A stretch of DNA of 14,956 nucleotides, taken from positions 1 to 14,956 of the forward strand of contig JAAZJI010000209.1 in assembly GCA_012800465.1 (NCBI GenBank), given 5' to 3'. Both the position numbers and the translations under genes were made by a program. This DNA comes from Spirochaetales bacterium. GTDB taxonomy: Bacteria; Spirochaetota; Spirochaetia; Sphaerochaetales; Sphaerochaetaceae. A model generated the notes under the pieces. That model saw only the letters and a program-made list of their open reading frames with translations, was not told where the DNA came from and ran no database searches. Shown here piece after piece: positions 3,584 to 11,937 of this stretch (positions are counted from its first letter, which is position 1; every line of letters starts with the position of its first letter).

Positions 3584-4900
3584 GTGCAAGGAGGAGCGTC
3601 GGATATCCGAAAGATCATACCCGTATTCCTTATCATCATCCTCGCATGCTCTTGCACCTCCTATGTCGACCTCTCGTCGACCGATGCGCACCTCAGGCGC
3701 GGGGAGTACACCAAGGCGTATGATTCGCTCGAACGGTCCCTCGGGCGTCTCGTCGCCGCCCAGGGTCCCCTGATCGCGAGCTACGACCTGGGGATGCTCG
3801 CCAGACTTGCCGGAGACTGGAGACGCTCCAATGAACTGCTCAGCGATGCCGAGCGGCGGATCCAGGAAGCGTACACGAAATCGATCACCGCCTCGATCGC
3901 CTCGTTCATCGTCAACGACAACACCAAGGAGTACGGCGGGGAAAGCTATGAGGACATCTATCTCAATCTCTTCAAAGCCCTGAACTACCTCCACCTCGGT
4001 CAATACGAGTCGAGCCTGGTCGAGATCAGGCGGATGATCGAAAAGCAGAGCGTGCTGCAGGAGCGCTATGAACGGGAGGCAAGCCAGGTCCGTCGCTACG
4101 CCTCGACCAACCATATCCGACAAGCCGACCTGCCCGCCGAGGCGACTTCGTTCACCACCAGCGCGCTGGCCAACTACCTCGGAGTGGTCATCGCCCGTCA
4201 CCTGGATGAACGGTCCACCCTCGATTACTCCTTCAACCAGATCCACCGTGCGTTCGAAACCCAGGCGAAGCTCTATCCCTTCCCCGTCCCCGAAAGCGTC
4301 GAGCGGCTCACCGGCGAAGACCGGGATCCCGTCCACCTGATCGCGTTCAGCGGGCGCTTCCCCGTCAAGGAGGAGCGGATGGATTTCATCCGGGTCTCCC
4401 CGTCCACCTATACCCGGATCGCCTACCCGGTTCTCCAGCCGGTCCCTTCGGCGGTCGCCTCCGTCCGCGTGCGGGTCGACCGGGAGGTCGCCACCACCTT
4501 GGAGAGGATGGAATCGTTCTCCCTCGTCGCCGAGGACGCGTTCCGGTCGAAAAGCGGTCTGATCTACGCCAAGGCGAGCATGCGGGCGGTCTCCAAGGAG
4601 CTGGGCCTCGGCATCTGGGACACCATCTCGAAGGACAAGGATGGAAAGCGGGGCGCCTTCGCCGAGTTCCTGAGCATCGTCTTCCGGGTGGGCAAGGAGC
4701 TCAGCGAATCGGCGGATCTCCGCTCGACCCACTACCTTCCCGCGGAAGCCTGGGTGGGAACGCTCGATCTCGAACCGGGTTCCTACACGATCGAGGTGGA
4801 GTACCTCGATCGGACCGGCCGGGTGCTCCATACCGAGCGTTTCATGAAAACCATCGATTCCGGGACGATCAACCTGCTTGAATCGTACAGTCCCCTCTAG
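3584..4900 (+). CDS. COG3014-type lipoprotein, divergent partner of the LpoB/LPP20 operon
   Basis: A 438-residue frame from GTG 3584 (431 residues if initiated at ATC 3605). The hydrophobic segment IIPVFLIIILACSC followed by TSYVD is a lipoprotein signal peptide; either Cys of ACSC could be lipidated. The mature protein is mostly helical in its first half, with TPR-like phrases (GEYTKAYDSLERSL, YDLGMLARLAGDWRRSNELL, NLFKALNYLHLGQYESSLVE), and beta-rich in the second half, with LIAFSGRFPVKEERMDF and the closing WVGTLDLEPGSYTIEVEYLD. That order is characteristic of COG3014, uncharacterised lipoproteins repeatedly found beside LpoB and LPP20 genes. It is transcribed away from the LpoB operon across a 100-nt shared region. 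The last stop shares a CTAG with the convergent helicase gene. The start codon is the main doubt; the frame itself is secure. Confidence 0.82.
   Translation: MQGGASDIRKIIPVFLIIILACSCTSYVDLSSTDAHLRRGEYTKAYDSLERSLGRLVAAQGPLIASYDLGMLARLAGDWRRSNELLSDAERRIQEAYTKSITASIASFIVNDNTKEYGGESYEDIYLNLFKALNYLHLGQYESSLVEIRRMIEKQSVLQERYEREASQVRRYASTNHIRQADLPAEATSFTTSALANYLGVVIARHLDERSTLDYSFNQIHRAFETQAKLYPFPVPESVERLTGEDRDPVHLIAFSGRFPVKEERMDFIRVSPSTYTRIAYPVLQPVPSAVASVRVRVDREVATTLERMESFSLVAEDAFRSKSGLIYAKASMRAVSKELGLGIWDTISKDKDGKRGAFAEFLSIVFRVGKELSESADLRSTHYLPAEAWVGTLDLEPGSYTIEVEYLDRTGRVLHTERFMKTIDSGTINLLESYSPL
3588..3594 (+). promoter_or_regulatory. Ribosome binding site that argues against the GTG 3584 start
   Basis: AAGGAGG is a near-perfect Shine-Dalgarno that lies inside the codons following GTG 3584. 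A normal spacing places the start at about 3600-3605, where the reading frame holds ATC (3605-3607) rather than ATG, GTG or TTG. From ATC the protein would begin (M)RKIIPVFLIIILAC, a canonical lipoprotein signal peptide. Confidence 0.6.
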
Positions 4901-7842
4901 GCGTCAAGGGCGACCGCCTCGTCCCCCTCGCCGTCGGTGATGTAGTCGTAGAGCGTCTCCTCCACCGGGTTCCGAAGCCGAAACAGGACATTCACCACAT
5001 CCCGCTCGATTCCCTTGTCGTCGACGAGGGTTCCCTGTTCATTGGAAAGAAAGAGGAGCTCGCCGAGGTAGTAGTGCCCCCTCCCCTCATCGTCGTTCTT
5101 CTTGACGAAGAGGAGCTTCTTCATCGCCGGATCGCGGATCGCCCGCATCTCTTTCGATCCCAGTCGAACCCGGGTCCGGCTCTGCCATGCGAAGTGTTCA
5201 TGGTCGATGAAGCGATCATCATAATCGATCGAAGCATCGATCTCCTCATGCTTGTGGTACGTCACGAAGATCGGACACGTATTCGTTTCCCGGTTGACTG
5301 TGTATCCATAGATCGTGTTGCTTTCATCCTGTTCCCAGGCAAGCACTCGGCACGCCTCCCTTCGGGTATACTTCCGTCCTCGCACAAGACCGAATTCATC
5401 GACCTGTCCGGCAAACCCCAGCTGATGGTTCAATGAGCTCAGTGCAAGCAGTTCATCCAGTTCGCTTCGATACTGGTCGTTTTGCAAAAGTTCGGAGAAC
5501 TCCCGTGAAAGGAAATAGCGGCCATCCCTCTCCTCGACATAGCTGATATAACCATAGGACTCCTTGTACCTGTCCTGGACGAATCCGTTGCCAAGGATCC
5601 GCAGGGCGGATGCGAACGAGGCCTCGGTCGGTACAAAGCCATAGTTCGTTTCGAACCGGGCGAACAGCTCCTCTTTCGTCTTCGGACCTTCCGGAAGGAC
5701 CGTCAAGAGATATGTTTCATGGATCCTGATCCCCCGGGGAAGGTAGAGGCTGAGAAACCTCAGGCTCTTGAGATGGATCTCATTCATGGCAAGGGTGAAA
5801 TCGGGATCGATCACGGCCTTGCACTGCGCCCACGTTTTCCCATAGTGGATGAAGAGCTCCGGGTTGATGCCATCGAAGCGGATGAAATCCACGAGGCTCG
5901 GTATCCGGCCCCCCAAGCGGTTCTTTACGCTTTGGTACGCTTCGGCCAGCATCCTTCTGTTGGAGAACGACGCCCTGGTGATCGAGTCGAGGATCCGTTC
6001 CTTCGCGATCCGGTCGAACGAGACCGTCGAAACGCCGGGAATCGGCGCGCCGCCGAAGACCACTCGCCGCAGGATATCCTTGTCGTAGCTGTTCTCCCCG
6101 AAGAGGGCGATCGGGATCATGTAGTTGTTCCGGTGGTTTCCCACGAAATCGATGACGGTGAGAAATTCCTTTCCTGGGTATTTTCTCAAGCCCCTTCCGA
6201 GCTGCTGGGTGAACACGATGACCGATTCGGTCGGCCGGAGCATGATGATCTGGTTGAGCGAGGGGATATCCACCCCCTCGTTGAAGATGTCGACGCTCAC
6301 CAGATATTCGAGGTGGTTCGGATCCTCCTCTTCCGCTTCAAGCCGATCGAACGCTTCTTCCCGCTCTTCCTGGCTGTTTGCCCCACTGAGCTGAAGCGCC
6401 CGGACGCCAAGGTCCCGCAATTCCCGGGCGACAAACGCCGCATCATCGTTCGTCGAGGTGAAGATGAGACCCCTTCTTCGACTCAACCCCAGGGAGTATC
6501 GCCTCAGGATCACGGAAAGATGCTTTATCTGTTCCTCCCTTTCAAGATTGCTGAACGCTTCGACCTCATGCTCTTCACTACCGTCGATGCTGAGGCCGGT
6601 GATGCCGAAGTAATGGAAGGGGGCCAGCAGGTCTTCTTCAAGCGCCTGGGAAAGGGTGATTTCCGCCGCAACCGTATTGCCGAAGAGCCCATGGACATCC
6701 TCCCCGTCCGGTCGGACGGGCGTAGCGGTCATCCCCAGGAGAAACGCCGGGCGAAAATACTCAAGGACTCTCCTATAGCTTGCCGCCGGAGCGTGGTGGG
6801 CTTCATCGACGACGATGTAGTCGAACCAATCACGATCGAAGGAGTGCAGCACTTCGTCCTTGGCAAGCGTCTGGATCGTCGCAAAGAGATAGGGAGCGTC
6901 CAGGTTCCGGTCCGAGCCGGTCAGGAGGGCACATTCCACCGGCTCGTCGAGGTGCCGCATGAAACTCAGCATCGCATCCCGGGCGATCTGTTCCCGATGG
7001 ATGATGAACAGGAACCGCTCAGGCTTCACCTGGTTCACATCGCTTGCCGCGAGGATTGTTTTTCCCGTGCCCGTCGCCGAAACGAGAAGAGCTTTCCTCC
7101 TTCCCTCCGACCGGATCTCATCTAGACGCGCAAGAGCATCCTTCTGCATCGAGTTGAGCTCGAAACCCCGTCTAGCGACGAAAGTCTCTTGGATGGGACG
7201 GCTGTCGACGGGTCGGGGCACGAACGCCCGGGCGGTATTGAAGGTGTCCCACACTCTGGCATAGTGCTCGAGCCATCCCTCCGAGACGATCGTGGCATGC
7301 TCCCACAGGCGTTCGAACTCCGCCTTCGTATCCTGGATCAATTGGCCTTGATTGGTGCCGGCCACCTGGAGATTCCACTCGTGGTTTCTGAGGAGGGCAT
7401 CCTGGGTGATGTTGGACGAACCGATGATCAGGGTCGTCGGGCGACCGGCATGCTCGAAGAGGTAGCCCTTGGTATGGAACGCTTCGGCGGTATACACCCG
7501 CACTTCGATCGTTGGAGCGAGTTCGTGGAAGATGAAGCCGACGGCCCGGGGATCGGTGAAGTTCAGATAGTCGCTGGTGAGAATCCGTCCCTTCACCCTC
7601 CGCCGTCCGCATTCGAGAAGCGCCTGCAGGAGGGTTGCGAGCCCTCCTTTGGTCAGAAACGCGACGCTGAAGGAAAAGGAGGAACACTCACGCAGGTGGG
7701 TGTTCAGGACATCGGCGACCCGTCGCCGACCGAGCCGGTCGTTGAGTACAAGCCTGGGCCTCATCCCCTCGGGACTCGGTATCCGACGATCGAGAAGCCC
7801 TGAATGCAGACCACCGGCCAGCTGCCGTTCAATTTCGTTCAT
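4897..7842 (-). CDS. PLD nuclease - SF2 helicase - DUF3427 protein
   Basis: A 981-residue three-part protein. Residues about 25-205 are a phospholipase-D-like nuclease domain with HTKGYLF (His123, Lys125) followed by LIIGSSN (141-144), the HxKx4 plus GSxN catalytic pattern. Residues about 225-570 are a superfamily 2 helicase: Walker A ATGTGKT (256-262), DEAH at 346-349, TAT (372-374), motif V near SVDIFNEGVDIP, and motif VI QQLGRGLRK (546-554). The C-terminal third (about 690-960) has the DUF3427 signature around GRKYTRREACRVLAWE and ETNTCPIFVTYHKHEE. All key residues are present. Such proteins are ATP-driven DNA or RNA translocases joined to a nuclease; relatives are frequent in accessory and defence islands, but no role is proven for this family as far as I know. 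GGGAG lies 5 nt before the ATG, which overlaps the Nudix stop (ATGA). Confidence 0.93.
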   Translation of the reverse strand: MNEIERQLAGGLHSGLLDRRIPSPEGMRPRLVLNDRLGRRRVADVLNTHLRECSSFSFSVAFLTKGGLATLLQALLECGRRRVKGRILTSDYLNFTDPRAVGFIFHELAPTIEVRVYTAEAFHTKGYLFEHAGRPTTLIIGSSNITQDALLRNHEWNLQVAGTNQGQLIQDTKAEFERLWEHATIVSEGWLEHYARVWDTFNTARAFVPRPVDSRPIQETFVARRGFELNSMQKDALARLDEIRSEGRRKALLVSATGTGKTILAASDVNQVKPERFLFIIHREQIARDAMLSFMRHLDEPVECALLTGSDRNLDAPYLFATIQTLAKDEVLHSFDRDWFDYIVVDEAHHAPAASYRRVLEYFRPAFLLGMTATPVRPDGEDVHGLFGNTVAAEITLSQALEEDLLAPFHYFGITGLSIDGSEEHEVEAFSNLEREEQIKHLSVILRRYSLGLSRRRGLIFTSTNDDAAFVARELRDLGVRALQLSGANSQEEREEAFDRLEAEEEDPNHLEYLVSVDIFNEGVDIPSLNQIIMLRPTESVIVFTQQLGRGLRKYPGKEFLTVIDFVGNHRNNYMIPIALFGENSYDKDILRRVVFGGAPIPGVSTVSFDRIAKERILDSITRASFSNRRMLAEAYQSVKNRLGGRIPSLVDFIRFDGINPELFIHYGKTWAQCKAVIDPDFTLAMNEIHLKSLRFLSLYLPRGIRIHETYLLTVLPEGPKTKEELFARFETNYGFVPTEASFASALRILGNGFVQDRYKESYGYISYVEERDGRYFLSREFSELLQNDQYRSELDELLALSSLNHQLGFAGQVDEFGLVRGRKYTRREACRVLAWEQDESNTIYGYTVNRETNTCPIFVTYHKHEEIDASIDYDDRFIDHEHFAWQSRTRVRLGSKEMRAIRDPAMKKLLFVKKNDDEGRGHYYLGELLFLSNEQGTLVDDKGIERDVVNVLFRLRNPVEETLYDYITDGEGDEAVALDA

Positions 7843-8222
7843 CCCGGCTCCCGTTCAAGATGAGCGACGATCGGAAGATCGGCCTCCGCCCAATCGAGCC
7901 GAACGAGCTCATCAAGAGAGAACCAGCCGCAGTCGAGGTGTTCATTGAGGGTGATCGTCCCCTCCACACATGAGCACCGATAGCTTTCCAAGGTGATCTC
8001 GAAGGTCGGATAGGAGTGCTTGACGGTAAGAAACGGGGAATGGACCTCGATCTCGATTCCCAGTTCTTCCCGAATCTCCCGCTTAAGAGCGGAAGCCGGA
8101 CTCTCGCCTTCCTTGATTTTTCCACCGGGAAACTCCCACTTTCCTGCAAGAGGACCGGACCCGTTTCGCTGAGCGGCGAACACCCGCCCATCCTCGACAA
8201 TGACCGCTGCAACGACTCTCAT
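7839..8222 (-). CDS. MutT-type Nudix hydrolase, (deoxy)nucleoside triphosphate pyrophosphohydrolase
   Basis: A 127-residue single-domain protein, the usual size for MutT-like enzymes. The Nudix box is perfect: Gly34 and Glu40 frame a KIKEG spacer, and REIREELGI (48-56) supplies the metal-binding glutamates. The upstream KWEFPGGK phrase (28-35) is typical of MutT/8-oxo-dGTP or 5-methyl-dCTP pyrophosphohydrolases, which hydrolyse damaged or modified nucleoside triphosphates to the monophosphate and pyrophosphate. The exact substrate cannot be read from sequence. No Shine-Dalgarno is visible before ATG 8222; instead TAAGAT ends 7 nt upstream, suggesting a leaderless mRNA. The stop overlaps the helicase start by 4 nt (ATGA), so the two are translationally coupled and probably act together. 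Confidence 0.93.
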   Translation of the reverse strand: MRVVAAVIVEDGRVFAAQRNGSGPLAGKWEFPGGKIKEGESPASALKREIREELGIEIEVHSPFLTVKHSYPTFEITLESYRCSCVEGTITLNEHLDCGWFSLDELVRLDWAEADLPIVAHLEREPG

Positions 8223-8229
8223 AGATCCG

Positions 8230-8258
8230 ATCTTAGCAGCCGTCCGCTCGTTTGACCA
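8230..8258 (-). promoter_or_regulatory. Candidate leaderless promoter of the Nudix-helicase operon
   Basis: On the minus strand TGGTCA (8258-8253) and TAAGAT (8235-8230) are separated by 17 nt, each matching four of six consensus bases. The -10 ends 7 nt before ATG 8222, so transcription would start at or within a base or two of the start codon. Confidence 0.45.
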
Positions 8259-9205: not shown

Positions 9206-9268
9206 ACATCCGCTTGCCTTGAGCTTGTCATCCTTCCTGTTTAACAATACCCATGCAGGATGGCTATA
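9206..9268 (+). other. Gap between the DMT gene and the first barrel gene
   Basis: This 63-nt gap has no hairpin with a T run. It holds TTGTCA (9225-9230, five of six to -35) without a good -10 at 16-18 nt, and AGGA (9257-9260) as a ribosome site for ATG 9269. Immediately afterwards TTAACA (9241-9246) and TATAAT (9265-9270) form a promoter-like pair with an 18-nt spacer whose -10 overlaps the start codon. Confidence 0.4.
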
Positions 9269-10615
9269 ATGAACAACCGAAGGACTCTGTCATTCCTTCT
9301 CGTCTTTATGCTGGTTCCCGTGCTTCTCCACGCCCGCGTGTTTGACCGGTTCGCCTTCACCGTCTCCAACGATTGGCATACCCCCAACATCGGATACAAC
9401 GTTGACGACGGGATGACCTGCGGGGCCCATATTCAAGCCGGTTTTGTGTCCGGCTTGACCATGAAGCTGGACGGGGTCTCCTTCACCGACAAACTCACCA
9501 CCGAAACCCGATTCGACCTCATCTCCTTAGGTGCGTTCCATCCCTTCCGATTCTCTCTCCGCTCCCTCGAAGTGACGATGACACCCCATCTCTCCTTCAT
9601 GGTCGCCGGGAATTTCGGATTCAGGACGATCCAGAACAGCTGGCATCTGCTTCGAAGAATCCCGATCCTCCGGATCGACTACCTCGATGCCGATACCCTC
9701 TTCACGGCTCAGGGCGGAGGGGTGCTTTCACTCTTTTTTCCCTTCGGTCACGGTGGCCTCGATGCCCACATCGGCTTCACGATCGCTTTCGAGTGGGTGA
9801 ACCGCTTCGAAGCGACGATCGCCTACCACCCCGATCATGCGACCCGGATCGACCTTTCCTACCGGCATCTCGACCTTGGGGATCTTCATCCGACGCTGGG
9901 TGATTACCTGGATCGCTACCGGGGATTTGAAATCTCTTTTACGCACACAAGCGGACCGCTTGCCGAGTTCTTCCTCATCTACCCCGCACACAACATCTCC
10001 TACGGCTCCTATGCGTTCAACATCCTCGGCTTCAACGAAGAAAAGACATTTATCAAAGCCGACTGGACCTACTCCTTCGGGTTCGCCCTCGACAACCGGC
10101 CGGGGGTGCTTCAGCTCTTCGAGATCTCCTACAGGGGGTTCGGCCTCGAAATATGGAACACCAGCGGCTCGATCAAGAATGACGCCGGCATGGAGATCGC
10201 CCGTCACCAGGGCGGGCTCTATGCCCTCAGCTACCGCTTCGAGCCGTTCGACCACCCTTTGCTCACACCCTACCTGAAACCCTTTGGAGGCATCCAGCGC
10301 TTCGTCTACCTTGAAAACCTCGTTCCCACCATCGAGCACTACCTTCCGGCGATCGGGCTGGAGCTCGGACTCCTCGTCGGAAAAGAGGACGACATCGTCT
10401 TCGGCGGAACGGCGTGGCGGCCCTGCATCGGGGCGACCGCCCACTACCTCTTTTTCCACGACCGGATCGCATCCCTTTTCCCGGAGGTCTACACTCACCC
10501 TAAAAACAGGCTCCAGCTCGGTCTGCTCATCGCGCTGGAGATCGGACACGACATGGACGCCCTCAGAACTCAAAGCAGGCGTCCTGAGCGGGCTCTTGCT
10601 CCCTATCTGCCGTAA
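9269..10615 (+). CDS. Predicted outer-membrane beta-barrel protein, first of a tandem pair
   Basis: A 448-residue secreted protein. The signal peptide is MNNRRTLSFLLVFMLVPVLLHA with probable cleavage after LLHA. The mature chain is made of alternating polar/hydrophobic strands (for example LDAHIGFTIAFEWVNRFEATI and LQLGLLIALEIGHD) with aromatic residues at strand ends, the usual look of an outer-membrane barrel. It is paralogous to the next gene: both share NDW near the mature N-terminus followed by DDG, VxGNxGFxxxQN, SYG...N.L.F, and P Y L K ... G ... R F. Unlike its partner, it carries about 18 residues (Arg/Pro-rich) after the last strand. The start at 9269 is preferred over ATG 9260 because AGGA lies 8 nt upstream. 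An LpxR-like relation is possible but unproven. Confidence 0.78.
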   Translation: MNNRRTLSFLLVFMLVPVLLHARVFDRFAFTVSNDWHTPNIGYNVDDGMTCGAHIQAGFVSGLTMKLDGVSFTDKLTTETRFDLISLGAFHPFRFSLRSLEVTMTPHLSFMVAGNFGFRTIQNSWHLLRRIPILRIDYLDADTLFTAQGGGVLSLFFPFGHGGLDAHIGFTIAFEWVNRFEATIAYHPDHATRIDLSYRHLDLGDLHPTLGDYLDRYRGFEISFTHTSGPLAEFFLIYPAHNISYGSYAFNILGFNEEKTFIKADWTYSFGFALDNRPGVLQLFEISYRGFGLEIWNTSGSIKNDAGMEIARHQGGLYALSYRFEPFDHPLLTPYLKPFGGIQRFVYLENLVPTIEHYLPAIGLELGLLVGKEDDIVFGGTAWRPCIGATAHYLFFHDRIASLFPEVYTHPKNRLQLGLLIALEIGHDMDALRTQSRRPERALAPYLP

Positions 10616-10652
10616 AACATCTCTCTTTGCTGTACCGAAGGGCGATCTTTTG

Positions 10653-10658
10653 TACAAT
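10653..10658 (+). promoter_or_regulatory. Possible -10 element for the second barrel gene
   Basis: TACAAT ends exactly 7 nt before ATG 10666, as in the other genes here that lack a clear Shine-Dalgarno. The hexamer 17 nt upstream (CTGTAC, 10630-10635) is a poor -35. The 50-nt gap contains no terminator-like hairpin, so read-through from the first barrel gene is also possible. Confidence 0.35.
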
Positions 10659-10665
10659 CAAGGTG

Positions 10666-11937
10666 ATGAAACGGATGTGCCTGGTCATGATCCTTCTCCT
10701 TTTCGGTCTTGCAGGCGTCAAAGCGGCGGCGCTTGAAGAGGTGAGCTTGGGCACCGGAAACGATTGGATCACCTTGGGGCTCGGAGACAACCGGGATGAC
10801 GGGCTCAGCTTCGGCCTGCATGCCACGGTGAAGACGGAAAAACAGCTTCTCATATCCCTGGCCCTGAAGGGATATACCGACAAATTCGTCCATCAGGAGC
10901 GCTACGATCTTGCCAAGGTGAAGATCACCTATCCCTTCCTCTTTGATCTTGACCGCTCCTATGTCCGCCTCTCGGCGACCTGCGGAGTGCTCGTCGTTGG
11001 GAATCTGGGGTTCCAGAACGCCCAGAACTTCTTTCATCGGATCCTCAAAAAGGATGAGCTCGCCCTGGCCTATCCCCCATCACACACCTCGGTCCATCTT
11101 CACCTCGGGGGAGAAGCCGCCTACGGCATCCGACTCGGACCGACCCTGCTCGAAGGAGCGGTCGACATCGGATATGACCCGGGATGGGAGGTCCATTGGG
11201 AGGCGGCCCTCCGCCTGAGAATGAAGAAAGGCGCAAGCTTCCTTTCCGCATCATGGCGAACCGCCTATCCTTCCGACCGATATGCCAGCCAGAACCTTCA
11301 AGCCAATCGCTATGAGGGACTGAAGCTCACCTTCCTCCACGACGGAGGGCTCCTTCAAACCTTCTTCTCCACCTACCCCGGATCCGGGTATTCCTATGGA
11401 GGGTGGATGGTCAACCTCCTTGCGTTTGCCAAAAAGCCGACCTTCCAAACAGCCCACATCGCCTACGGAATGGGAATCTTCCTCGATCCGACCGGCTTGC
11501 GGAACCGATCGAACGAGCTCATCTACAAGAACATGAGCTTGGAAGTGCGCTACAAGAACGGACCGATCGAAGACTCCTGGTTCCAGGTCGCCTCCTACCT
11601 TCTCGGCTGGCGCTTCGACCTGCATGAAGGAACCCGGGCCGCCCCCTATCTCAAGGTTCTTGCGGGTCTCGAGCGCTTCAGCCTCAAGCACGAGACCCGG
11701 ACGACGCTGGATGAACGGCTTCATCCGACGATCGCCTTCGAAGCGGGATCGTATTTCGGCAGGCCGAACCAGTGGGTCATCGGAAACCTCGACTATCGGA
11801 TCAGGCTGGCTGGAAGCATCCACTACGTGGCGGGAGATGTGAACCGCCCGGCCCTCCCCCGTGCATATCAACGTCAGACGCCCTCATGGATCTTCCAGAT
11901 CGGAATCGGTCTTGAGATCCGGCATGACCTCACCTAG
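10666..11937 (+). CDS. Predicted outer-membrane beta-barrel protein, second of a tandem pair
   Basis: A 423-residue secreted protein with signal peptide MKRMCLVMILLLFGLAGVKA (cleavage probably after VKA or KAA). The mature part mirrors the upstream paralogue: GNDWITLGLGDNRDDG near the N-terminus, VVGNLGFQNAQNFFH, SYGGWMVNLLAF, APYLKVLAGLERFSL, and the terminal strand WIFQIGIGLEIRHDL. Strand periodicity and aromatic belts support an outer-membrane barrel. The first in-frame starts upstream (TTG 10627) would spoil the signal peptide, and ATG 10675 would remove its positive charges, so 10666 is chosen; AAGG is only 2 nt away, too close for a normal ribosome site. It ends on a CTAG shared with the convergent peptidase gene. 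Function unknown; duplication suggests two versions of one surface activity. Confidence 0.78.
   Translation: MKRMCLVMILLLFGLAGVKAAALEEVSLGTGNDWITLGLGDNRDDGLSFGLHATVKTEKQLLISLALKGYTDKFVHQERYDLAKVKITYPFLFDLDRSYVRLSATCGVLVVGNLGFQNAQNFFHRILKKDELALAYPPSHTSVHLHLGGEAAYGIRLGPTLLEGAVDIGYDPGWEVHWEAALRLRMKKGASFLSASWRTAYPSDRYASQNLQANRYEGLKLTFLHDGGLLQTFFSTYPGSGYSYGGWMVNLLAFAKKPTFQTAHIAYGMGIFLDPTGLRNRSNELIYKNMSLEVRYKNGPIEDSWFQVASYLLGWRFDLHEGTRAAPYLKVLAGLERFSLKHETRTTLDERLHPTIAFEAGSYFGRPNQWVIGNLDYRIRLAGSIHYVAGDVNRPALPRAYQRQTPSWIFQIGIGLEIRHDLT

What the first reader, a model, noticed from the sequence alone, without database searches (positions are those of the whole stretch)
4897..8222. PLD-helicase-DUF3427 protein coupled by ATGA overlap to a MutT-type Nudix hydrolase
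Seen: the Nudix stop and helicase start share ATGA (7839-7842), and both proteins keep every catalytic motif (HxK, Walker A, DEAH, motif VI, perfect Nudix box). Known: SF2 helicases with an N-terminal PLD nuclease and a C-terminal DUF3427 occur widely in bacteria, often in accessory DNA, and Nudix enzymes act on damaged or modified nucleotides. Inference: the pair may be one functional unit, either repair of oxidised or modified DNA or an anti-phage system in which the Nudix partner depletes or signals with modified nucleotides. Sampled lines in this region look less GC-rich than the lipoprotein gene next door, which would fit acquisition.
Basis: partly seen in the sequence, partly recalled or inferred. 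Interest (0 to 1): 0.72.

Follow-up and report, generated by a model that had tools for sequence, protein, structure and literature searches.

The report
Restriction enzyme with nucleotide-cleaning partner
This is a bacterial enzyme predicted to shred DNA carrying methyl-type marks on cytosine, encoded with a small enzyme whose closest tested relative destroys the matching marked DNA building blocks; the pairing recurs across bacteria and archaea, including the well-studied Staphylococcus enzyme, and suggests such enzymes need a guard that keeps the marks out of the cell's own DNA.

Summary
4897-7842(-) is a full-length SauUSI-type Type IV (methylation-dependent) restriction enzyme: 38% identical to SauUSI, with nuclease, motor and 5-methylcytosine pocket kept. 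7839-8222(-) is a Nudix hydrolase of PADLOC candidate family PDC-S07. Stop and start overlap by ATGA.

The pairing is general. A Nudix lies within 450 nt in 74 of 80 named loci (seven phyla), with none in the other 931 kb of flanks. In 299 Bacilli genomes, 70 of 72 with the enzyme have the Nudix, against 25 of 227 without; 61 of 72 are adjacent. Related PLD-helicases mostly lack it (Bacilli 0 of 20 and 3 of 14, Actinomycetota 0 of 23). S. aureus SauUSI itself has the gene immediately upstream; its product is PDB 5X1X.

3GWY, the best PDB match, nests among the paired Nudix enzymes and hydrolyses 5-methyl- and 5-hydroxymethyl-dCTP equally well: the nucleotide forms of the bases SauUSI cuts in DNA.

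Best reading: a restriction enzyme with a dedicated pool sanitiser that keeps its trigger bases out of host DNA. Substrate and role here are inferred. In this lineage the locus looks resident, not recently acquired. Both families are known; my searches found no account of their joint function.

The parts
4897..7842 (-). SauUSI-type Type IV (5-methylcytosine-dependent) restriction endonuclease, 981 aa: PLD nuclease, SF2 ATPase motor, coupler, SRA-like DUF3427
   Evidence: Pfam; PADLOC mREase_IV PDLC03658, E 2e-189 over 8-969; PDB 7clg (SauUSI) E 2.9e-190 over 10-969; 347 of 919 aligned residues identical to SauUSI
7270..7842 (-). PLD-family nuclease domain (about residues 1-191); catalytic H123 and K125
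   Evidence: Pfam PLDc_2 70-180; SauUSI H119/K121 align to H123/K125 and are conserved in groups A-D
5992..7179 (-). SF2 translocase/ATPase (about residues 222-617)
   Evidence: ResIII 227-377 and Helicase_C 452-553; invariant Walker A, DExH and motif VI columns
4936..5757 (-). DUF3427 (residues 696-969) holding the SRA-like target-recognition domain; pocket Y845, Y847, F859, V860, D876, W886
   Evidence: Pfam PF11907 E 6e-70; residues aligned to SauUSI Met829/Tyr831/Phe841/Ile842/Asp858/Trp868 named in PMC7913695
7839..8222 (-). Nudix hydrolase of family PDC-S07, 127 aa; predicted 5-methyl/5-hydroxymethyl-dCTP pyrophosphatase
   Evidence: PADLOC PDC-S07 E 6e-48; best PDB match 3gwy E 2e-27; 3GWY nests in the clade of linked homologues; AlphaFold model pLDDT 96, closest folds MutT2 and 3GWY
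8058..8123 (-). Nudix box GGKIKEGESPASALKREIREEL (about residues 34-55)
   Evidence: sequence; core box kept in 159 of 159 linked loci
7839..7842 (-). ATGA stop/start overlap coupling Nudix to endonuclease

Best explanation
The locus is a two-gene modification-directed restriction module. The large protein scans DNA with its SRA-like domain, recognises 5-methylcytosine (and probably 5-hydroxymethylcytosine), translocates with its SF2 motor and shreds the DNA with a dimeric PLD nuclease. Unlike ordinary restriction systems it has no methyltransferase to protect self; safety rests on the host DNA being free of the mark. The Nudix partner enforces this at the precursor level. [quoted passage not shown] Depletion of a modifying phage's precursors would be a by-product. 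Shown here: gene anatomy, family membership, near-obligate pairing, conserved catalytic and pocket residues. Inferred: the window enzymes' substrates, and the self-protection role.
Confidence: 0.55

Rival explanations
1. Two-pronged attack: the Nudix mainly starves phages that make 5-methyl- or 5-hydroxymethyl-dCTP, while the endonuclease cuts DNA already modified. Same enzymology, but the target is the phage, not protection of self.
For: PADLOC lists PDC-S07 among phage-defence candidates (that 'S' means a single-gene candidate is recalled). PMC10742078 cites phage kinases for both monophosphates (passages). In Bacteroidales the same Nudix family lies 0-7 nt from Schlafen-type helicase genes, the one scanned being defence candidate PDC-S41.
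Against: Lowering phage modification would hide phage DNA from the partner endonuclease (inference). Retention in trans in several genomes looks like a cell-wide need.
Confidence: 0.27
2. Oxidative-damage sanitation and repair: the Nudix removes oxidised dNTPs (8-oxo-dGTP, 5-hydroxy-dCTP) and the helicase-nuclease processes damaged DNA.
Against: The partner is a restriction enzyme, not a repair enzyme. The profile of linked Nudix scores 3GWY 155, NudG 114 and MutT 94 bits, and 3GWY acts 50-fold less on 5-hydroxy-dCTP.
Confidence: 0.08
3. Regulatory or signalling role: the Nudix hydrolyses a nucleotide that controls the endonuclease, or binds it directly.
For: ATGA coupling and correlated trees, r 0.39.
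Against: No fusion seen: the Nudix open frames printed are at most 234 aa. Gene order and strand vary (95 upstream, 32 downstream, 32 convergent); the partner can be elsewhere; SauUSI works alone.
Confidence: 0.05
4. Hitchhiking: the two genes are merely co-inherited neighbours without functional link.
For: In the window's own genus the locus is positionally fairly stable.
Against: The pair is adjacent in several arrangements (at least 17 changes on the helicase tree), in seven phyla and on plasmids; genome-level co-occurrence 70 of 72 against 25 of 227, p about 4e-44, uncorrected for phylogeny.
Confidence: 0.03

Closest known systems
SauUSI (S. aureus Type IV restriction endonuclease; PDB 7clg)
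   Same: Same domain architecture over the full length, 38% identity, catalytic H/K and 5mC-pocket residues kept; S. aureus also has the Nudix gene immediately upstream
   Different: The S. aureus enzyme was studied as a single protein; the Nudix neighbour is not mentioned where I looked (no 'Nudix' in PMC7913695; no MutT, pyrophosph- or operon in it; the 2011 paper was not held). Target site of the window enzyme unknown
PDC-S07 (PADLOC phage-defence candidate) and the S. suis report PMC12813430
   Same: Window Nudix and all 31 members of the linked alignment match PDC-S07; PMC12813430 found PDC-S07 and RM type IV co-localised in 23 of 23 occurrences (passage)
   Different: In the passage seen no function is given, and the paper's main text does not contain the word Nudix
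Q5LBB1/3GWY of Bacteroides fragilis, 5-methyl-dCTP / 5-hydroxymethyl-dCTP pyrophosphatase (PMC5158307)
   Same: Best PDB match of the window Nudix by sequence and by Foldseek; sits inside the clade of helicase-linked Nudix proteins
   Different: In the passages seen it is characterised only as a nucleotide hydrolase; whether its own gene neighbours a SauUSI homologue could not be checked
M. smegmatis MutT2 (5zro with 5-methyl-dCTP)
   Different: Scores only 95 bits to the profile of linked Nudix proteins; its gene neighbours were not examined
E. coli NudG (Orf135)
   Different: Scores below the linked family (114 bits) and is not close to linked proteins in the tree

Membership tests
SauUSI-type Type IV restriction enzyme | PLD nuclease + SF2 ATPase + coupler + SRA/DUF3427 in one chain | tested here: met
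   full-length match
SauUSI-type Type IV restriction enzyme | Catalytic HxK of PLD and helicase motifs intact | tested here: met
SauUSI-type Type IV restriction enzyme | 5mC pocket residues (Tyr831, Phe841, Ile842, Asp858, Trp868) | tested here: met
   Y847, F859, V860, D876, W886 in the window; Met829 is Tyr845
SauUSI-type Type IV restriction enzyme | ATP-dependent cleavage of 5mC/5hmC DNA, no cleavage of unmodified DNA | not testable with these tools
   needs purified protein
SauUSI-type Type IV restriction enzyme | No cognate methyltransferase; host free of the mark | tested here: inconclusive
   no PF00145 in the host draft genome, 81% complete; no methyltransferase family among the window proteins scanned
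PDC-S07 Nudix | Match to PADLOC model PDLC04899 | tested here: met
   E 6e-48; 31 of 31 A2 members
5-methyl-dCTP pyrophosphatase (3GWY-like) | Closest relatedness to an enzyme with measured activity | tested here: met
5-methyl-dCTP pyrophosphatase (3GWY-like) | Measured preference for 5-substituted dCTP | not testable with these tools
   only 3GWY and NudG values from the literature
MutT (8-oxo-dGTPase equivalog TIGR00586) | Score above the curated cut-off | tested here: not met
   86.1 bits against cut-off 97.9
Recently acquired mobile defence island (this locus) | Odd composition and variable chromosomal place | tested here: not met
   GC 0.57-0.58 like neighbours, though Nudix GC3 is low (0.625); same lipoprotein cluster nearby in 12 of 20 relatives' loci

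The most novel reading that the evidence does not exclude
Type IV restriction of the SauUSI kind is not a lone-enzyme system but a two-component one with its own form of self-immunity: instead of a methyltransferase marking self, a dedicated nucleotide-pool enzyme keeps the trigger base out of self by destroying its triphosphate precursor. It mirrors phages that use a dCTPase to keep unmodified cytosine out of their DNA (that phage parallel is recalled).
Probability: 0.5. Interest if true: 0.85.

Novelty: new variant of a known kind. Interest (0 to 1): 0.72.

Why it matters
SauUSI was described in 2011 and is called a major barrier to gene transfer in S. aureus (title of PMC7913695), yet the gene directly upstream, whose protein has its own solved NMR structure (5X1X), does not appear in the mechanistic paper that could be searched. 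Linking the two gives a testable answer to an open question: how a bacterium tolerates an enzyme that shreds DNA carrying a base which salvage or phage metabolism could write into its own chromosome. It also suggests an activity for a common 'phage defence candidate' (1,672 loci in one rumen survey, PMC13356809, passage), and may help to predict which PLD-helicases read modified cytosine.

Tried and rejected
Considered and rejected: (1) recent horizontal acquisition of this locus. (2) Non-orthologous replacement of the Nudix by a MazG-type enzyme where it is missing: none recognised by eye beside L311 or L083, though a MazG-like gene does lie beside two Lactobacillaceae plasmid copies. (3) 'Nudix presence follows the Tyr831 methyl pocket': not supported, group B lacks Tyr831 but is paired. 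(4) Phage-borne pairs as the main vehicle: only 1 of 80 viral contigs with relatives of the helicase had any Nudix hit, 632 nt away; the two best viral matches run to the end of the stored stretch, so their downstream side was not seen. Against this, all three 'phage' records that I fetched of 27 with a match carry an adjacent pair (L345, L352, L353); they are unverified contigs and may be bacterial (my inference). Of six plasmid records fetched of 20 with a match, four have the Nudix within 45 nt, one (L351) has it 942 nt from an apparently broken helicase, and one (L350) has none. (5) A defence role for the unlinked Nudix genes in Bacilli: the 22 neighbourhoods fetched of 25 show no recurrent restriction gene (by eye); the other three (G449, G564, G578) lie 169-419 nt from group-D helicases and had been seen. 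(6) Whether the B. fragilis 3GWY gene itself neighbours a SauUSI homologue: not settled. In 295 Bacteroidales genomes 20 had a match to 3GWY (21 loci). Of the three best-scoring, L363 and L354 neighbour a full-length SauUSI-type gene and L362 a group-D-like one; L374/L420 also neighbours a group-D-like one; in the rest no helicase of this superfamily was found within 1.5 kb.

Limits of the counts: groups A-D are my split by score, length and aligned range, not by a tree. The 80 named loci are the best 80 of 530 confirmed hits, not a random draw. In one search I examined 36 of 38 group-A and 20 of the other 34 (group B) Bacilli loci, and 20 group-C and 14 group-D loci taken from the list, 30 of 37 Actinomycetota matches, 20 of the relatives with a match (19 of the same genus, 1 of the same family). 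Flanks were 1.5 kb for genome-search loci, and several group-D loci had only 13-830 nt downstream. The 159 linked loci hold at least one locus fetched twice (L107/L306) and eight whose helicase scores under 700 bits. Trees are FastTree and the co-occurrence test is not corrected for phylogeny. 'On another contig' does not always mean far away: in G434 and in L051's genome both genes lie near contig ends.

Led nowhere: the structure job for the helicase was never accepted, so only the Nudix was modelled.

Full report
What is there. The window is contig C123 of a draft genome (1.44 Mb, 308 contigs, 81% complete); several of its closest named protein relatives are from Sphaerochaeta. Two minus-strand genes overlap by ATGA: a 127-aa Nudix hydrolase (7839-8222) and a 981-aa PLD-helicase-DUF3427 protein (4897-7842). 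Facing genes lie on both sides: a lipoprotein ending at 4900 and an EamA transporter starting at 8252.

What the large protein is. It is a full-length homologue of SauUSI, the S. aureus Type IV restriction enzyme: PDB 7clg matches residues 10-969 with E 2.9e-190, PADLOC's 'Type IV methyl-directed restriction enzyme' model matches 8-969 with E 2e-189, and 347 of 919 aligned residues are identical to the S. aureus enzyme. PMC7913695 (passages) describes SauUSI as a PLD nuclease, an ATP-driven translocase and an SRA-fold recognition domain. In its model that domain flips 5-methylcytosine into a pocket of Tyr831, Phe841, Ile842 and Trp868, with Asp858 contacting the base; 5-hydroxymethylcytosine is also recognised. 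The window protein has Tyr847, Phe859, Val860, Trp886 and Asp876 at these places and keeps the PLD His123 and Lys125.

The pairing is general. A scan of named genomes with an 18-sequence alignment confirmed 530 relatives; the best 80 were kept. A Nudix HMM built from 120 homologues finds a Nudix within 450 nt in 74 of 80: Bacillota 45 of 49, Bacteroidota 13 of 13, Methanobacteriota 7 of 8, Actinomycetota 3 of 3, Spirochaetota 3 of 3, Pseudomonadota 2 of 2, Bathyarchaeota 1 of 1, unplaced 0 of 1. There is no other Nudix hit of at least 60 bits in the remaining 931,488 bp. Of the six misses, three have the Nudix on another contig (L051, L056, L070) and three have none of this family (L039, L083, and L045 with only an 84-bit hit). 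All 31 diverse members tested are PDC-S07.

Class- and phylum-wide surveys with controls. In 299 Bacilli genomes drawn evenly from the class, 72 have a SauUSI-type enzyme (groups A and B). 70 of these 72 have the Nudix family (at least 145 bits), against 25 of 227 others, and 61 of 72 have it within 200 nt. Of the 11 not adjacent, three have a truncated or split helicase with transposase-like genes nearby as read by eye (G540, G541, G547), two are at 1.0 and 2.6 kb, four are on another contig (in G434 both genes lie near contig ends), and two lack it. Related PLD-helicases act as internal controls. Group C, without DUF3427 in the member scanned, has 0 of 20 Nudix neighbours; group D, with a partial DUF3427 match in the member scanned, has 3 of 14. 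In Actinomycetota group A is paired in 7 of 7 loci and the group-D-like enzymes in 0 of 23. In the Spirochaetota survey the eight best-matching loci, the window's own among them, are all paired, and 3 of the other 10. So the partner follows the SauUSI-type enzymes much more than the nuclease-helicase chassis in general, with some paired group-D-like exceptions (also in Bacteroidales). Group B is a caution: it is paired in 18 of 20 loci but has V, L or I at the Tyr831 position in 20 of 20.

Gene order. Among 159 linked Nudix genes 95 lie upstream on the same strand, 32 downstream on the same strand and 32 downstream on the opposite strand. On a tree of 121 helicases chosen as linked and under 75% identical, at least 17 changes of arrangement are needed, 13 on the Nudix tree; the two trees correlate with r 0.39 against a permutation maximum of 0.11. 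So adjacency occurs in many arrangements. Together with retention in trans, this points to a shared biochemical purpose rather than a rigid complex.

SauUSI itself. Two public records, one filed as an S. aureus phage contig and one as an S. aureus plasmid, carry the same pair. The helicase in L345 matches 7clg over its whole length with 2063.5 bits. The neighbouring Nudix in L349, where the helicase frame is split, matches PDB 5x1x over all 130 residues with 286.5 bits. Thus both S. aureus partners have solved structures. Searches for papers holding 'SauUSI' with 'Nudix', 'DUF3427' with 'pyrophosphohydrolase' and 'Nudix' with 'type IV restriction' found no account of a link; the 2011 SauUSI paper was not held. 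The nearest prior notice is PMC12813430 (passage): PDC-S07 and RM type IV were co-localised in 23 of 23 occurrences in S. suis; no function is given in the passage.

Placing 3GWY. On a tree of linked and unlinked Nudix proteins, 3GWY sits in a clade of 29 with 26 proteins that neighbour a helicase of this superfamily and 2 that do not (support 91). Its nearest rows are the Nudix of a Hymenobacter plasmid pair and L362, whose neighbour is a group-D-like enzyme. The profile of linked proteins scores 5X1X 185, 3GWY 155, NudG 114, MutT2 95 and MutT 94 bits. Unlinked members are scattered over the tree (18 changes), so the family also exists without the restriction enzyme. Sequences are short and the tree is approximate.

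Mechanism. SauUSI restricts as a single polypeptide in vitro and in an E. coli clone (PMC3874153, passages), so the Nudix is not a nuclease subunit; E. coli supplies NudG, a 5-methyl-dCTPase, which may have masked the need (inference). A modification-dependent nuclease has no methyltransferase to label self. If 5-methyl- or 5-hydroxymethyl-dCTP forms, from salvage of shredded foreign DNA or from phage enzymes, polymerases can use it: PMC10742078 (passages) shows efficient incorporation by Q5 polymerase and cites phage kinases for both monophosphates. The host chromosome would then become a target. A partner that hydrolyses exactly these triphosphates removes the risk. The same activity could also starve modifying phages; which role dominates needs experiment. 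The host draft genome has no detectable C5-cytosine methyltransferase, as expected but not conclusive at 81% completeness.

This locus. In 12 of 20 relatives' loci the pair lies near the same LpoB/lipoprotein cluster: adjoining in the closest relatives, about 0.3-1.3 kb away in others. Two also share the EamA side (L330, L336). GC is ordinary (0.578 and 0.570), though the Nudix GC3 is low. 17 of 20 are paired; L341 holds only half a helicase, and L325 and L326 have the Nudix in trans. It looks like a resident, vertically kept defence locus here, while plasmid-borne pairs exist elsewhere.

Verdict. A new variant of a known kind: a known Type IV restriction family and a known Nudix activity, shown here to be near-obligate partners, with a specific and testable self-protection hypothesis.

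Noticed in passing
L414:3457-4455 and L415:3263-4495 (genome G839, Bacteroidales): Two copies of the same Nudix family in one genome each lie 446-486 nt from a divergent C5-cytosine DNA methyltransferase (PF00145), another 5-methylcytosine link.
   Followed up: partly
L416:5375-7468, L417:5388-7460, L373: In three Bacteroidales genomes the Nudix gene directly follows (0-7 nt) a gene that looks like a Schlafen-group-3 helicase; the one scanned (L416) is defence candidate PDC-S41, so the Nudix may partner a second kind of defence protein.
   Followed up: partly
L346:7898-9978 and L351:6512-6823: Lactobacillaceae plasmid copies carry an extra nucleotide pyrophosphohydrolase gene right after the endonuclease (MazG-like in L346); in L346 a GIY-YIG/Schlafen-type helicase gene follows it.
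   Followed up: partly
L093:2342-10949: Two tandem, apparently broken SauUSI-type genes behind one Nudix gene in a Methanobrevibacter contig.
   Followed up: no
L035, L047, L052, L081, L094, L097: Bacteroidota members of the endonuclease family sit in stop-to-stop frames of about 1,130-1,150 aa, some 150-180 residues longer than the aligned part; the extra segment was not identified.
   Followed up: no
L258, L268 and other group-B enzymes: Group-B endonucleases are mostly paired with the Nudix but have V, L or I where SauUSI has the methyl-contacting Tyr831; their target base may differ.
   Followed up: partly
window 9260-11937: Two tandem genes of about 440-450 aa without a Pfam match; the first weakly matches (27%) the region of the second in relative L330, so they may be paralogues.
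   Followed up: no
window 4897-4900: The lipoprotein gene 3584-4900(+) and the endonuclease gene overlap tail to tail by 4 nt.
   Followed up: no
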